NCBI GenBank assembly: GCA_944363045.1
Contig: CALVTT010000006.1
Span: 1 to 49,284 of the forward strand
DNA from: an uncultured Clostridia bacterium
GTDB lineage: Bacteria > Bacillota > Clostridia > Christensenellales > Borkfalkiaceae
DNA: 49,284 nt
Direction: 5' to 3'
Shown here: positions 43,277 through 49,239 of the stretch, piece after piece
Position numbering within the stretch: position 1 is the first letter of the stretch
Layout: each line of letters starts with the position of its first letter
The notes under the pieces: generated by a model
The model's database searches: none
Seen by the model: only the letters and a program-made list of their open reading frames with translations
What the model was told of the DNA's origin: nothing
Translations under genes and position numbers: made by a program

Positions 43277-43305
43277 TTGACAGCAGAGCCGCCGCAGTGT
43301 ATAAT
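43277..43305 (+). promoter_or_regulatory. Consensus promoter in front of the tetR remnant
   Basis: TTGACA (43277-43282), a 17-bp spacer and TATAAT (43300-43305) form a perfect consensus. The sequence is also part of repeats found at 44695-44725 and 45700-45722, so it may have arisen from RHS-associated sequence that moved here. Confidence 0.65.
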
Positions 43306-43329
43306 ATAGTCAAGCGCAGCCGCGTTTGG
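43299..43329 (+). repeat. 31-bp direct repeat, first copy
   Basis: This stretch (GTATAATATAGTCAAGCGC followed by a variable base and GCCGCGTTTGG) recurs at 44695-44725 with one mismatch. In the second copy it encodes the entry into the RHS core. Confidence 0.85.
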
Positions 43330-44635: not shown

Positions 44636-44694
44636 TCAAATCTATGCTCCTTTTGGCGTATTTTGGGGTATCAAGAACGGCGGCGGGCGCAGGC

Positions 44695-44725
44695 GTATAA
44701 TATAGTCAAGCGCGGCCGCGTTTGG
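44695..44725 (+). repeat. 31-bp direct repeat, second copy
   Basis: Same stretch as 43299-43329 with one base changed. Here it is read as AYNIVKRGRVWG and leads into the RHS core. Confidence 0.85.
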
Positions 44726-44989
44726 GGCAATTTGTTAGAGGAGCCGGAAAGCGGTGTTTTACTTGCCAATCCCTTCCGTTACCGCGGGTACTATTACGAT
44801 ACGTCCATCGGGCTCTACTATCTGAACAGCCGCTACTACGACCCCGAGACGGGCAGATCCTTAAATGAAGATCTTATCAGCTATCTCGAGCCCGAGACGA
44901 TCGGCGGCATCAACCTTAGAGGCCTGCATATTGTGGATGATCTTGTGGAAAACAGATTTGGGTTTGTTATTTCTGTGCGTTGGTGGTAA
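44696..44989 (+). pseudogene. RHS repeat-associated core remnant
   Basis: From about 44720 the frame reads WGNLLEEP...NPFRYRGYYYDTSIG and then LYYLNSRYYDPETGRSLNED, the canonical conserved core found before the variable toxin tip of RHS/WapA proteins. It goes on to ISYLEPETIGGINL and then leaves the usual pattern: YAYCNNNP is expected but RGLHIVDDLV is found, and the frame stops 23 residues later. No N-terminal repeats or secretion signal precede it. It is a displaced or decayed C-terminal piece. Confidence 0.8.
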
Positions 44990-44992
44990 AAA

Positions 44993-45637
44993 ATGAAAAC
45001 AATGCTGTGGCTACTAACCATTGCCGATATCGGACTTTTGATTGCTTCCATCCTCTGTTTTGCCCTGTGCAGTCCTGCTGCGATTGGGATCGTCCCGTTT
45101 TTGGCGATGTTGATCGGCTTAATTGCGACCGTTATACTGTTTATAAATTATACAAATCGATACCACGACAGGAATGCTGAGCAGACGCTTGACCTGTTTC
45201 GGTCTTGGCGGGGAATACAGGATCGCTATGATTGCACCGAGGCAGAGGCAGGGATTTTCGAGATCAAGTTCAATGACTATGTACTCAGGCTGAATTTGGT
45301 CGGATATCCATTCAAAAAAGCCTTTGTTGCCGCATTGATGATCCGGTTGCTCAATTATGCTTCACTTCCGAAAAAGGGTCGTTTTATTGATTTCTTTAAG
45401 CGGCGTTTCGTTGGGGATAAGTTAAAAAAAGATGATATTTATCTTTGCTTCCTTTCAGCACATCGCAAGAAGAATACAACTATTTTAAGGCGAGGGAAGA
45501 TCCGGTTTGGTTTCTTAGTAGAGTTGATCTTATTCTCGAAGTTTAGATTATTCGTGATCGGCTACAATGATTATTATTTATACAAGAAAGCCATTGTGAC
45601 TTACAGCGAAAAATGGTTTTTGCGTGGTGAAGGATAA
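44993..45637 (+). CDS. Small membrane protein, possible immunity protein
   Basis: This 214-residue protein has two hydrophobic segments at the N-terminus (about residues 4-26 and 31-51). A basic, mostly soluble part follows with RSWRGIQDRYDCTEAEAG and an aromatic/basic end. I do not recognise the family. It starts 3 bp after the RHS remnant on the same strand, where immunity genes normally lie. That position is the only reason to suggest an immunity role. A hairpin terminator follows. Confidence 0.6.
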   Translation: MKTMLWLLTIADIGLLIASILCFALCSPAAIGIVPFLAMLIGLIATVILFINYTNRYHDRNAEQTLDLFRSWRGIQDRYDCTEAEAGIFEIKFNDYVLRLNLVGYPFKKAFVAALMIRLLNYASLPKKGRFIDFFKRRFVGDKLKKDDIYLCFLSAHRKKNTTILRRGKIRFGFLVELILFSKFRLFVIGYNDYYLYKKAIVTYSEKWFLRGEG

Positions 45638-45699: not shown

Positions 45700-45722
45700 T
45701 TGACAGCAGAGCCGCCGCAGTG
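45700..45722 (+). repeat. 23-bp repeat identical to 43277-43299
   Basis: TTGACAGCAGAGCCGCCGCA plus GTG is identical in the two places. Here it is followed by unrelated sequence and no -10. It can be read as IDSRAAAVHHL in a short frame that stops at about 45787. The rest of 45723-45928 has no gene I can support. Confidence 0.85.
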
Positions 45723-45928
45723 CATCATCTGCGGATCAAAGTCAAATACCGGGATGAGGCGCCGAAAAAAAGTGATCCTGTAGGATAAATTGCTCTATGG
45801 CGGCGTGAGCGAGCTCGCTTACAATGCATTCGTGTATGGGTATCGCAACGAGTTCAAGATAGAGCCGTTCCAAAATCAAAAAATGTTGGAGCGATCTTCT
45901 TTCATCCCAACGTTTATTATAGAGCCTC

Positions 45929-45970
45929 TAAGAAAAGCAGATAGGAAGTACTACCTATCTGCTTTTCTTA
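45929..45970. terminator. Bidirectional terminator closing the immunity array
   Basis: A perfect 17-bp stem (45929-45945 with 45954-45970) with an 8-nt loop and A/T-rich arms lies just past the end of the WapI-like gene. It can also stop transcription arriving from the plus strand. Confidence 0.85.
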
Positions 45971-45991
45971 CTTACAAAAAACATTCCTATT

Positions 45992-46381
45992 TCATTTGTT
46001 TAAGAGACATTGTATGCCTTCCGATAGCGTTTTCGTTATCGTTTGATCTACTAATATATCCCTAAATATTGCTTTAATATTTCCATCCAAAGAGTTTAAT
46101 TCTGTAGAAAGATAAAATCCATTTTTGTCTCCTCGCAGCAGAAAATATGACTCTGAATCGGTATCTTGCAACATGATAGTTCCGTGCAAATGTTCAAAAA
46201 TATATTTTAAATCCAATAAAGCCTTTTCCAACAATGCAATGGAAATACAAAAAGAACAGCCACCTGAAAAGCCATCAGAATAAACTTCGATTTTAAATGT
46301 TATATAATGATCAATTTCATATATTTTTTCAAACGCCAACGAGAGCAAATCGCTGTTAAATATTTCGATTTTTTCAGACAT
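45992..46381 (-). CDS. WapI-like immunity protein (fourth cassette)
   Basis: This 129-residue protein resembles WapI-family immunity proteins in pattern: a short acidic protein with YSDGFSGGCSFCISIALLEKALLDL followed by alternating strands. (Key features are the F-S-G-G-C-S-F core and the following amphipathic helix.) Start 46381 follows GAGGAGTT. The TAA of a decayed toxin tail lies 16 bp upstream, the typical toxin-immunity order. The assignment is from pattern memory and is moderate. Confidence 0.6.
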   Translation of the reverse strand: MSEKIEIFNSDLLSLAFEKIYEIDHYITFKIEVYSDGFSGGCSFCISIALLEKALLDLKYIFEHLHGTIMLQDTDSESYFLLRGDKNGFYLSTELNSLDGNIKAIFRDILVDQTITKTLSEGIQCLLNK

Positions 46382-46397
46382 GCCTAACTCCTCATCT

Positions 46398-46563
46398 TTA
46401 AAAAACAAATTTGAAATCATCCACAAGTTTAAGCATTGGATTATAATTAAAATGTATTTTTGTTGTATGAGTTCCCGACCTCACAATTCTTTGAATTTTT
46501 TAGCCGCCCATCACTTGCCAACCATCTTTTGTCGCTTAACTTATACCGATACGTTAATATCCC
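46398..46563 (-). pseudogene. Frameshifted toxin tail (fourth cassette)
   Basis: On the minus strand one frame reads LTYRYKLSDKRWLASDG. A second, shifted frame then reads KIQRIVRSGTHTTKIHFNY and ends LVDDFKFVF-stop at 46398. Joined, this resembles a common RHS/WapA tip end (SDGWVKM..., then VDDFKFK). One or more small indels break it. It overlaps the end of the upstream immunity gene by about 10 bp and is followed at once by the WapI-like gene. Confidence 0.55.
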
Positions 46564-47039
46564 TTATATTTATCAAGGAACTCAATTACACTTAACTTTT
46601 GCACATCATGTAATATTTCCTCATCTTCGTACCACCAAGTATCACCTATATACAACCGGCTATCCGCATAGTACCATGGGATTATTTTAGTGTAGGTCTC
46701 GTCTTTAGGAATTAGATGATACAAATAAATATTTTTATCCAGAAAGATAGCAAAATCATCGTGAACTCGATATGCCAATAGATAGTCATCCGAGGAGTGC
46801 AATTTGTCGTCTTCTTTAGATAATTTTTGCATAGTTAAATACTCTTGATAAAGCCTGCACTCTTCTAAAACGTTAGAATCCCAAGTTTCCTTATATAAGG
46901 TATTCATTAAAACCGGATACCCATAGTCTGCAATCAATTTACTTGCGCTGGAGTAGTGTTTCCCATCAGTGAGTTGAATAAAAGAAGAATTTACCCAACC
47001 TCTTCCCAAAACTTGATTCCTTATAATAATTTTCTTCAT
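46554..47039 (-). CDS. Putative immunity protein (third cassette)
   Basis: This is a 161-residue soluble, acidic, aromatic-rich protein starting MKKIIIRNQVLGRGWVNSSF. It has no motif that I recognise. It begins 12 bp after the stop of a Hint-toxin remnant on the same strand, and is AT-rich like the rest of the array. The immunity role is inferred from position and size only. Confidence 0.6.
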   Translation of the reverse strand: MKKIIIRNQVLGRGWVNSSFIQLTDGKHYSSASKLIADYGYPVLMNTLYKETWDSNVLEECRLYQEYLTMQKLSKEDDKLHSSDDYLLAYRVHDDFAIFLDKNIYLYHLIPKDETYTKIIPWYYADSRLYIGDTWWYEDEEILHDVQKLSVIEFLDKYKGY

Positions 47040-47051
47040 CTTTTAACCCCA

Positions 47052-47363
47052 TTAAATATGCACATTAAACCGCATAACCTTACTGTATATATTTATATGT
47101 TCGACAAAGTTCAAGCTGCCATTTATCGGATGCAAATCAAAATGCCGCCCTTGAGCACTTCTATGATGAGCCGTTTCCTGTGCAAAATCTCTAAATTTCC
47201 TCTTTATCAAATTATTCACGAGCACGCAGGCGTCGGAGACGTAGTAGGTATGGAAATCGGCAACTTCGAGGTTGTAAGTCGTTTCGGGCGTTTCGAGCTG
47301 CTTCAGCGTTACGCCTTCTACTTCGCAGAGCGTGCCGTCGGAAAGAAGGACTTTATCGCCGCA
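47052..47363 (-). pseudogene. Hint C-terminal half plus toxin tail, N-truncated (third cassette)
   Basis: On the minus strand the frame reads CGDKVLLSDGTLCEVEGV, then TPETTYNLEVADFHTYYVSD and VLVNN, the C-terminal half of a PT-HINT domain. About 50 residues follow (RDFAQETAHHRSAQGRHFD through FNVHI-stop). A stop codon lies directly before the Cys, so no start or secretion part exists. The Hint part is nearly identical to that of the toxin at 49.1 kb, which suggests recombination at Hint. Confidence 0.75.
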
Positions 47364-47489
47364 TCATTCTTGAACACTTGAAATAATTATGCTCGATATC
47401 TTTCAATTTGTCAATGCAATAAGGAAAACAGATAAGAGCATAAATTGTTGCACTTAATAGTATAATTCACCAACAATTCATCCGACAAC

Positions 47490-47918
47490 TCATATGTTTA
47501 AATAGTCTAACAATTTTGTGGATGACATATTATATAGATTTTGGTGCTGTAGCGTGAAATTACGCAATTTTTCTATGTTAGAAAAACCATTCACATAATA
47601 ATCTATGTCCGCCAAACACGCTTCCAAGGATCCTTTATCTTCTAATCTAACAAAATTGCATCTATCTCTATCAAATAATGGAGCAGCCGTATTGTTACAT
47701 ATCGCTTTTACAACACATGCAACATTGACATAGTAATCAACAGGATCATAGCAAGATGTTTGAACCTGAATCATAGCGATCGTTTCTGTAAATTCTTTCA
47801 TGAAAGATACAGCGGTACGAGAAGTAAATCCTCTTGAAAATAATTCTTTTTTTAAAAGCATTAAAAAAGACTTCTTCTCCAACCCTGCTATACCATATTT
47901 TTGCGTTCCTAATTCCAT
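47490..47918 (-). CDS. Putative immunity protein (second cassette)
   Basis: This 142-residue protein starts MELGTQKYGIAGLEKKSF. It looks helical and has no motif that I recognise. Start 47918 follows GAAGGGAATAGA; the open frame extends 16 codons upstream. It lies 68 bp after a PD-(D/E)XK-like toxin tail, so immunity is the best guess. Confidence 0.6.
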   Translation of the reverse strand: MELGTQKYGIAGLEKKSFLMLLKKELFSRGFTSRTAVSFMKEFTETIAMIQVQTSCYDPVDYYVNVACVVKAICNNTAAPLFDRDRCNFVRLEDKGSLEACLADIDYYVNGFSNIEKLRNFTLQHQNLYNMSSTKLLDYLNI

Positions 47919-47986
47919 TCTATTCCCTTCAAATTTTATTTGTAAGTTACAATTTTTCCTGTCCAACCTTTCCCTGATCCTTTTAA

Positions 47987-48139
47987 CTATCGCTCCAATT
48001 GTTTTAATCCACGAGCGATTGCTCTGGGGTTATCTGGCTTTAATTCATATACAATTTTATTAACATCATCAATTGCATCAGTTCTGCGATTTCTTAATGG
48101 ATTATCTCGAAAATCTGAACCTCCAAAGTTCCTTTGAGG
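47987..48139 (-). pseudogene. PD-(D/E)XK-like toxin tail (second cassette)
   Basis: A 50-codon frame reads RNRRTDAIDDVNKIVYELKP then DNPRAIARGLKQLER-stop. The Asp...Glu-x-Lys pattern and the following NPRAI match the end of restriction-endonuclease-fold toxin domains in RHS proteins. It starts after an in-frame stop, so everything upstream has been lost, and it also stops early compared with family members that continue past the QLER helix. It overlaps the end of the first immunity gene by 46 bp in another frame. Confidence 0.65.
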
Positions 48140-48666
48140 TTACCCTTGTTATAGATCTGTCGAAATGGACTGGCACTCTCATAGTAGCTTAAGATTTGGA
48201 TACGGTTCTTCTCCATCATGTTGCCTGTAACAATATCTTCGTAATTTTTTTGCGTTAAAACAATATTTATAGCCTGTTCAAAAAGATTTTCAGTGATTTT
48301 ATTTTCTAATACGAAAATCGAATAAGGATACGTATGTAGGAAATCTACTATCGTGCTATAATCGAAATCAAATTGTAACAATCCGAAATAATTATCTTTC
48401 CCTTCTTTCCTTATTTTCTTATGAAAAATGACCTCTCCATATTTTAGCAAGCTCTTGTCTATAAAAGCGCTTATACCGATATGATCTTGTGTCTTATTCA
48501 CAAGCTCAGGAATTTCCCATAAAAACAGATAAGAATATTGCTTCACGGGCATATTTTCTTTAAGAAAGGCCTCTTGCCCCTCTATTACATCCTTACTATT
48601 TGGATCGATTCCTTGCTGACAAAGCCGCAAACTGTGGATACTTTCTTCAATCCAATAATTAAACAT
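48094..48666 (-). CDS. Putative immunity protein (first cassette)
   Basis: This 190-residue soluble protein starts MFNYWIEESIHSLRLCQQG. It has no recognised motif. It starts 24 bp after the Hint-nuclease toxin gene on the same strand, with AAGGAGA upstream, the usual immunity position. The last residues run into the remains of the next toxin tail, so the C-terminus may have been changed by the recombination that placed it there. Confidence 0.62.
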   Translation of the reverse strand: MFNYWIEESIHSLRLCQQGIDPNSKDVIEGQEAFLKENMPVKQYSYLFLWEIPELVNKTQDHIGISAFIDKSLLKYGEVIFHKKIRKEGKDNYFGLLQFDFDYSTIVDFLHTYPYSIFVLENKITENLFEQAINIVLTQKNYEDIVTGNMMEKNRIQILSYYESASPFRQIYNKGNLKGTLEVQIFEIIH

Positions 48667-48690
48667 ATCTTCTCCTTATCTCACTCCAAA

Positions 48691-49239
48691 TTAATAGAAA
48701 AAATGCAAGCCACTTGATACAAATCTTCCCAAGCCATCTATAATCCCAGCATTAAAATGTCTACCGAAGGAAACTCCATCCGAAAAAACATGTCCCACAA
48801 CATCATCTCGTATCATCTTATTGCCAAACGCGTAAATTCTTTGAGTGTACGTTTTTCCACCTTGTCTAATTGTTTCTTTAATGACCTGTGTGGGTTGTTG
48901 CGACTGAGCAATACCCAGGCTCTTCTTTGCTGCTCTAAAAGCACCTTTTCTTCCAGCATTAGCAGGAGAATTATTGGCTGGAATTGAACACGCATTATGT
49001 ACCAGCACACCGGCATCGGGGACGTAGTAGGTATGGAAATCGGCGACTTCGAGGTTGTAAGTCGTTTCGGGCGCGGCAAGCTTTTTGCAGGAGACGCCCT
49101 CTACTTCGCAGAGCGTGCCGTCGGAGAGAAGGACTTTGTCGCCGCACTTCAAGTCGCAGGCGGAAACCCACTTTTCGCTCAGGCCCGCATAGCTTGCATG
49201 CTCCAAGGCTCGGCTATCCTTGCGCAGAGCCACCCCCAT
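48691..49239 (-). CDS. Hint - HNH/EndoVII-like nuclease toxin tip, N-truncated
   Basis: This 182-residue frame starts with 24 unconserved residues, then has the C-terminal half of a PT-HINT domain (WVSACDLKCGDKVLLSDG through FHTYYVPDAGVLVHN). The tip domain has AGRKGAFRAAKKSLG, SQQP, then IRDDVVGHVFSDG and FGRHFN. This resembles HNH/endonuclease-VII-fold polymorphic toxins. An in-frame stop lies four codons before the ATG, so the secretion and RHS body is absent. The ATG has GAAGGAAG upstream, so an intracellular tip could be made. It is followed by a probable immunity gene. Confidence 0.65.
   Translation of the reverse strand: MGVALRKDSRALEHASYAGLSEKWVSACDLKCGDKVLLSDGTLCEVEGVSCKKLAAPETTYNLEVADFHTYYVPDAGVLVHNACSIPANNSPANAGRKGAFRAAKKSLGIAQSQQPTQVIKETIRQGGKTYTQRIYAFGNKMIRDDVVGHVFSDGVSFGRHFNAGIIDGLGRFVSSGLHFFY

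What the first reader, a model, noticed from the sequence alone, without database searches (positions are those of the whole stretch)
45929..49239. Four serial toxin-tip/immunity cassettes, three of them decayed
Reading the minus strand, each likely immunity gene is preceded by a toxin C-terminal piece: Hint-HNH-like, PD-(D/E)XK-like, Hint plus an unknown tail, and a DDFKF-type tail. Three pieces are too short or broken to appear as ordinary genes. The pattern fits successive replacement of the tip of one polymorphic toxin while all old immunity genes are kept and co-transcribed up to one terminator. It would protect against kin that still carry the older tips. None of the three middle immunity candidates belongs to a family that I recognise.
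Basis: partly seen in the sequence, partly recalled or inferred. Interest (0 to 1): 0.72.

Follow-up and report, generated by a model that had tools for sequence, protein, structure and literature searches.

The report
Eroded toxin tips, retained immunity genes
A bacterial genome, apparently an uncultured relative of gut Clostridia, carries a row of four discarded toxin ends, three of them broken, each still followed by an intact gene that looks like its antidote; this is a known way for bacteria to stay protected against relatives, seen here in an unusually readable half-decayed state.

Summary
On the minus strand, 49239-45992 holds four toxin-tip pieces, each followed by one intact short gene, ending at a strong hairpin (45970-45929). 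Piece A is a 5'-truncated pretoxin-Hint domain plus an uninterrupted tip; B, C and D are 3' stubs. Relatives support three of the four as toxin tips: B is Pfam Tox-REase-9; C matches intact tips in a Vallitalea RHS protein and a Roseburia non-RHS protein, each directly followed by an ImmC homologue; D matches an intact Hint-linked tip with an ImmD homologue in a genome of the same family, and ends of DUF637 (CDI-type) proteins. A relative (L042) keeps ImmB (84%) and ImmC (73%) in the same order with no tip detected; ImmB dN/dS is 0.13. Pairing for A and B was not seen elsewhere. New here: two tip/immunity pairs without a Pfam match, DUF4304 as a candidate immunity family, and a decay series in which the surviving toxin stub overlaps the presumed ribosome-binding region of the immunity gene. 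Protection and co-transcription are inferred.

The parts
48691..49239 (-). Cassette A: 5'-truncated pretoxin-Hint (49203-48991) joined in frame to an uninterrupted C-terminal tip, Tox-HNH-EHHH-like
   Evidence: Pfam PT-HINT E 4e-13; Tox-HNH-EHHH 16.2 bits, below cut-off; Hint coordinates; DNA homology to the RHS gene on contig C42 starts at 49226
48094..48666 (-). ImmA, 190 aa, putative immunity gene
   Evidence: ORF with AAGGAG before ATG; no relative found in 346 other genomes of the order, plasmids or viral contigs
47942..48091 (-). Cassette B tip remnant: C-terminal part of Tox-REase-9 (profile 35-88 of 88) with one in-frame TAG
   Evidence: two bases lie between the ImmA stop codon and its start
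47490..47918 (-). ImmB, 142 aa, DUF4304 family, putative immunity gene
   Evidence: Pfam PF14137 31.8 bits; 84% identical relative in L042, dN/dS 0.13
47445..47471 (-). 27-base dispersed repeat, insertion-sequence-end-like
   Evidence: 35 listed places in 23 other family genomes, a lower bound (my count); assignment inferred
47211..47363 (-). Cassette C: remnant of pretoxin-Hint
   Evidence: PT-HINT E 8e-8; 97% identical over 150 bases to the RHS gene on C42; 85% to the Hint piece of A
47052..47207 (-). Cassette C: C-terminal half of a toxin tip
   Evidence: 60-65% identical over 53-54 aligned positions to intact tips in L047 and L048, E 2e-19 and 5e-21
46554..47039 (-). ImmC, 161 aa, immunity gene of tip C
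   Evidence: 7 relatives; directly downstream of the intact tip in L047 and L048
46404..46539 (-). Cassette D tip remnant, in two frames (46539-46498, 46532-46404)
   Evidence: matches the tip in L021; 14 bases lie between the ImmC stop codon and its start
45992..46381 (-). ImmD, 129 aa, immunity gene of tip D
   Evidence: 30% identical, E 3e-10 by tblastn, to the gene after the same tip in L021
45929..45970 (-). terminator-like hairpin closing the array
   Evidence: 21-base arms; -27.5 kcal/mol, z -5.55; not listed by the terminator scan
44663..44989 (+). RHS core remnant on the opposite strand
   Evidence: TIGR03696 Rhs_assc_core E 9e-12
44993..45637 (+). 214-aa ORF, hydrophobic N-terminal stretches by eye, after the RHS remnant; possible further orphan gene
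   Evidence: no family match at or above cut-off

Best explanation
The region is the displaced tail of an RHS-type polymorphic toxin locus. Each time a new Hint-tip-immunity cassette recombined onto the parent RHS gene, the old tip was pushed downstream with part of its Hint domain and its immunity gene. The loose tips, no longer under selection as weapons, then lost their 5' parts (B, C and D keep only C-terminal stubs), while the immunity genes stayed intact and under purifying selection. They are presumably read from upstream to the hairpin at 45929-45970 and neutralise the same toxins when delivered by neighbours that still carry them. Shown: anatomy, homology of tips B, C and D, pairing for C and D elsewhere, selection on ImmB and ImmC. 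Inferred: displacement and its order, transcription, protection.
For: Hint pieces that start inside the domain and keep most of its 3' half. G082 (L021): RHS frame of 1760 aa with its own Hint and tip, then three cassettes with Hint pieces 59-135, 86-137 and 89-136 (the second with one TGA), one of them the D pair. Pair C in L047 and L048, pair D in L021. L042: RHS core remnant followed by five immunity-like genes, no tip detected, including ImmB and ImmC in the same order, with a possible 15-residue Hint-end scar after ImmB (E 0.085). ImmB dN/dS 0.13 (bootstrap 0.065-0.235); ImmB amino-acid changes 22 against a null mean of 42.8 (lowest 32 of 300), ImmC 43 against 88.5 (lowest 76 of 300), ImmC dN 0.19 with synonymous sites saturated. 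L046/L047 ImmC relatives, stub-only against tip-paired: dN 0.21, dS 1.22. Tip stubs directly before ImmC relatives in L044 and L046.
Against: The parent RHS gene is not in the contig. Pairs A and B are seen nowhere else; ImmA has no relative in the searches made. A published table, seen as a passage, lists Imm54 as a partner of Tox-REase-9, so DUF4304 would be a new partner. The C Hint piece is 97% identical to the RHS gene on C42 while the A piece, nearer the presumed parent, is 83%, so the row is not a simple newest-first order. DUF4304 genes in two other phylum genomes show no evident toxin in about 1.5 kb each side, plus-strand frames read by eye. One ImmC relative (L045) stands apart from recognised toxin pieces. 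For this locus, selection was measured against one relative, L042; of 28 ImmC pairs, 12 have saturated synonymous sites and the other 16 all have dN below dS.
Confidence: 0.85

Rival explanations
1. The immunity genes were collected from outside as defence (acquired orphan immunity), the toxin stubs being hitch-hiking ends of the donor toxin genes rather than displaced tips of a local RHS gene.
For: Stubs B and D carry no Hint and begin 2 and 14 bases beyond the previous immunity stop; L042 and L043 hold rows of immunity-like genes with no tip detected; the ImmB-ImmC pair occurs at a locus whose flanks, apart from an RHS core remnant, show no DNA homology to the window.
Against: Cassettes A and C carry Hint pieces 83-97% identical in DNA to the genome's own RHS gene; such rows lie behind an RHS gene in L021 and among RHS pieces in L023.
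Confidence: 0.1
2. Silent-cassette store: the downstream tips are kept so that they can recombine back onto the parent gene and change the weapon.
For: Tip A is uninterrupted and joined to a Hint piece that could recombine; Koskiniemi 2014 showed such switching in Salmonella (abstract).
Against: Tips C and D lack their 5' part and B the first 34 of 88 profile positions, and B and D lack Hint, so only A looks able to serve.
Confidence: 0.15
3. Plain decay of a dead locus: immunity genes are intact only because there has not been time to break them.
For: The tips are broken; a dispersed repeat sits inside the array. For ImmB alone, 10% of null placements also give no stop.
Against: ImmB dN/dS 0.13, and no stop in ImmC over 149 differences, where 1% of 300 null placements have none.
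Confidence: 0.04

Closest known systems
Rhs and CDI C-terminal displacement / orphan module arrays (Jackson 2009 PMC2935791; PMC3150448; PMC5727410)
   Same: full toxin gene, then rows of 5'-truncated tips each with an immunity gene
   Different: junction lies in a pretoxin-Hint domain, not in the Rhs core motif or VENN; host apparently an uncultured clostridium; three of four tips are stubs
Vibrio cholerae T6SS immunity gene arrays by sequential effector displacement (Kirchberger 2017 PMC5361080)
   Same: old effectors replaced, old immunity genes retained 3'; protection from kin that kept the old effector is proposed there too
   Different: T6SS effector modules, not RHS-Hint tips
Polyimmunity loci (PMC3482391)
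   Same: rows of unrelated immunity genes in one orientation, likely one transcript; L042 and L043 resemble them
   Different: described there as never interrupted by toxin genes or cassettes, whereas this array still has tip stubs between the genes

Membership tests
Rhs/CDI orphan toxin-immunity array | tip fragments lacking the N-terminal delivery part, downstream of a full-length toxin gene | tested here: inconclusive
   fragments present; parent gene beyond the contig end; seen directly in the relative L021
Rhs/CDI orphan toxin-immunity array | conserved pretoxin junction motif or domain retained at the 5' end of the tips | tested here: inconclusive
   PT-HINT pieces in A and C, none found in B and D: 2 of 4 cassettes
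[quoted passage not shown]
   pairs C and D found elsewhere with intact tips; A and B only by position
Rhs/CDI orphan toxin-immunity array | immunity protein neutralises the cognate tip | not testable with these tools
   needs an expression test
Polyimmunity locus | run of immunity genes uninterrupted by toxin cassettes | tested here: not met
   tip remnants lie between the genes
Tox-REase-9 toxin (tip B) | match above Pfam cut-off, full domain | tested here: inconclusive
   42.1 bits, cut-off 27.3, but only positions 35-88 of 88 and one stop
Tox-HNH-EHHH toxin (tip A) | match above Pfam cut-off | tested here: not met
   16.2 bits, cut-off 25; resemblance only
DUF4304 (ImmB) | match above Pfam cut-off | tested here: met
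   31.8 bits, cut-off 23.2, positions 2-56 of 115 only

The most novel reading that the evidence does not exclude
Polyimmunity loci arise by erosion of displaced tip arrays, and this window is caught midway. Deletions run from the stop codon of one immunity gene into the next tip and halt before that tip's last codons, because those codons overlap the ribosome-binding region of the next immunity gene. The ImmC family gives the series: whole tip (L047, L048), half tip (window), 15-16-residue stub (L044), about 45-base stub (L046), nothing found (L042, L043, L045).
Probability: 0.45. Interest if true: 0.55.

Novelty: new member of a known kind. Interest (0 to 1): 0.4.

Why it matters
It links two things described separately, displaced toxin-tip arrays and toxin-free polyimmunity rows, through half-eroded intermediates, and gives sequence evidence that immunity genes without a working toxin beside them are under selection in uncultured Clostridia-like bacteria. 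It also names two toxin-tip/immunity pairs (C and D) in which neither tip nor immunity gene has a Pfam match, and puts forward DUF4304 as an immunity family, all directly testable in laboratory E. coli.

Tried and rejected
ImmA as a distant ImmC relative (a 31% stretch): profile comparison gives probability 0.75 of 100, rejected. ImmD against the gene after the same tip in Arsenophonus: no similarity. Relatives of ImmA, ImmB, ImmC and tip A in plasmids: none; tip A in phages: none; tip C in plasmids and phages: none. Viral contigs, by short exact peptide patterns that reach close relatives only: none for tip A, ImmC (single and alignment), ImmB, ImmA, tip C; one hit for tip D, not followed up. 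Tip A in genome contigs: none. Tip A in solved structures: best E 0.39. PADLOC models: none. PHROGs: only matches at E 0.02-0.07, to families of unknown function. Tox-REase-9 plus DUF4304 pairing in the phylum: no genome but our own has Tox-REase-9 among 348. Promoter scan: no excess over shuffles (14 against 13.7).
Full report
What is there. The window is a whole contig (C6, 49284 bases) of a 1.77-Mb, 99-contig genome, 79% complete. The last 3.3 kb on the minus strand are 33-36% G+C against about 60%. Reading leftwards from the contig end: a pretoxin-Hint domain cut inside its N-terminal half and fused to an uninterrupted tip (A); ImmA; a Tox-REase-9 stub (B); ImmB; a 27-base dispersed repeat; a shorter Hint piece with half a tip (C); ImmC; a tip stub in two frames (D); ImmD; and a hairpin of -27.5 kcal/mol (z -5.55). 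The terminator scan lists 5 sites, all on the plus strand, against 3.5 in shuffles; it does not list this hairpin. The four short genes have purine-rich sequences before ATG: AAGGAG, GAAGGG, TGGGG (weak) and GAGGAG. Their lengths are beyond chance: 0 of 1000 shuffles have four ORFs of 129 aa or more.

Are the pieces toxin tips? B: Pfam Tox-REase-9 at 42.1 bits (cut-off 27.3) over 31 residues. C: a search with an alignment of three ImmC sequences returned 7 loci. In L047 (Vallitalea MAG) the ORF before the ImmC relative, open at the contig start, has an RHS core (TIGR03696, E 1e-25) and ends in a tip 60% identical to piece C over 53 positions; in L048 (Roseburia sp. 1XD42-69) the same tip (65% over 54) ends a protein with no Pfam or NCBIfam match. 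The ImmC relative starts right after the tip's stop codon in L047 and one base later in L048. D: in L021 an intact Hint-linked tip matches piece D (65.6% over 32 residues, E 6e-12) and the next gene matches ImmD (30%, E 3e-10 by tblastn). The same tip has relatives in 7 plasmid-collection records; in 5 of them it lies in a DUF637 protein (identity 44-47%), in 2 nothing is annotated; in Arsenophonus it ends that protein, a haemagglutinin-repeat gene overlaps upstream and a short gene follows. A: only a sub-threshold Tox-HNH-EHHH match.

The arrangement elsewhere. PT-HINT occurs in 10 of 101 family genomes searched, own included; 4 of 101 have two or more separate Hint places on one strand of one contig (own C6, G004 C28, G050 C15 and C44, G082 C26), my count from the table. 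G082 (L021) shows the full model: RHS frame of 1760 aa with Hint and tip, then a gene with sub-threshold leucine-rich-repeat matches, then three Hint-truncated tip-immunity cassettes. In L042 (uncultured Clostridia MAG) an RHS core remnant is followed by five immunity-like genes, three so called by position alone, and no tip was detected; two of the five are ImmB (84% aa) and ImmC (73%) in the window's order, with a Hint-end-like stretch of 15 residues after ImmB (E 0.085 only, but at the expected place). The rest of L042 shows no DNA homology to the window except the RHS core.

Selection. Between window and L042, ImmB has dN 0.083, dS 0.647, ratio 0.13 (bootstrap 0.065-0.235); amino-acid changes 22 against a null mean of 42.8, though 10% of null placements are also free of stops. 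ImmC has dN 0.19 with synonymous sites saturated (pS 0.86), so no ratio; changes 43 against a null mean of 88.5 (lowest 76 of 300), and 1% of null placements avoid a stop. Across all 28 pairs of 8 ImmC sequences, 12 are saturated and 16 have dN below dS; L046 (stub only) against L047 (tip-paired) gives dN 0.21, dS 1.22. Selection may date partly from when the toxins were present.

Erosion series. Of the 7 ImmC relatives, two have a whole tip directly upstream (L047, L048), two have a stub (L044: 15-16 residues, E 0.001-0.011; L046: about 45 bases) and three have none found (L042, L043, L045). Compared with the intact tips of L047 and L048, the 60 bases upstream score above all of 2000 base shuffles for the window, L044 and L046; for L042, L043 and L045 between 83 and 1723 of 2000 shuffles do as well, the 83 being L042 against L048. 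These shuffles keep base composition only. In all five with tip or stub a TGGGG or TGGAGGG, equivalent to the tip's last codons, ends 5-17 bases before the immunity start (17 in L044, where an AGGAG follows). So the last tip codons may survive because they serve the immunity gene; that is inference. The 5' ends of B and D lie 2 and 14 bases beyond the preceding immunity stop: two cases only.

Against a simple story. The parent RHS gene is not seen; the one other RHS gene found in this incomplete genome (C42, open at the contig start) has a different tip and is followed by its own short gene and unrelated genes. Its Hint is 97% identical to piece C over 150 bases but 83% to piece A over 235, so position does not give age, unless gene conversion acted. 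ImmA and ImmB were found in none of 346 other genomes of the order, ImmC in 1 of 346; a further family genome with ImmC (G068) turned up by way. DUF4304 in 2 of 248 other phylum genomes shows no evident toxin neighbour, and a published table passage gives Imm54 as a Tox-REase-9 partner.

Literature. The model is published: C-terminal displacement (Jackson 2009 PMC2935791, abstract and outline), orphan modules (PMC3150448, passages; Koskiniemi 2014 PMC3967940, abstract and outline), strings of immunity genes as remnants of replaced tips, and polyimmunity loci never interrupted by toxin cassettes (PMC3482391, passages and section 41), retained immunity perhaps protecting against kin with the old effector (Kirchberger 2017 PMC5361080, passages), orphaned immunity genes after toxin pseudogenisation, some later broken themselves (PMC5727410, passages), and arrays and orphaned immunity in bee gut bacteria (PMC8125069, passages). 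PMC12247911 was seen only in listings. No paper in the held library has both DUF4304 and immunity. Searches were not aimed at stubs kept as ribosome-binding regions, so I make no claim that this is absent from print.

Verdict. Observation confirmed, interpretation supported, kind already known; moderate interest for the readable intermediate state and the two pairs without a Pfam match.

Noticed in passing
window 47445-47471 (-): Dispersed repeat of about 27 bases: 35 listed places in 23 other family genomes (a lower bound: two candidates scored per genome), at least 10 of them starting within 200 bases of a contig start (my count); some copies follow hairpin-T terminators by eye. Looks like an insertion-sequence end, here without its element.
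   Followed up: partly
window 43299-43329 and 44695-44725; 43277-43305 and 45700-45728: Two short direct repeats (31 and 29 bases, 97% and 93%) around the plus-strand RHS remnant; possible recombination scars.
   Followed up: no
L038 (G128:C2:5000-22000): About 17 kb dominated by short minus-strand genes, immunity-like by appearance and including an ImmC relative (26 frames of 100 aa or more on minus, 11 on plus): apparently a large polyimmunity locus.
   Followed up: partly
L023 (G050:C15:22000-35440): Long tandem array with several nearly complete Hint-tip-immunity units and RHS pieces over 13 kb, including two very similar neighbouring immunity-like genes.
   Followed up: partly
L048 2961-4996: Tip C rides on a non-RHS carrier preceded by two mutually similar small proteins; no Pfam (carrier) or NCBIfam (all three) match; perhaps another delivery system.
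   Followed up: no
window 44993-45637 (+): 214-aa ORF with hydrophobic N-terminal stretches directly after an RHS core remnant, convergent with the array; possible orphan gene of a second RHS remnant.
   Followed up: no
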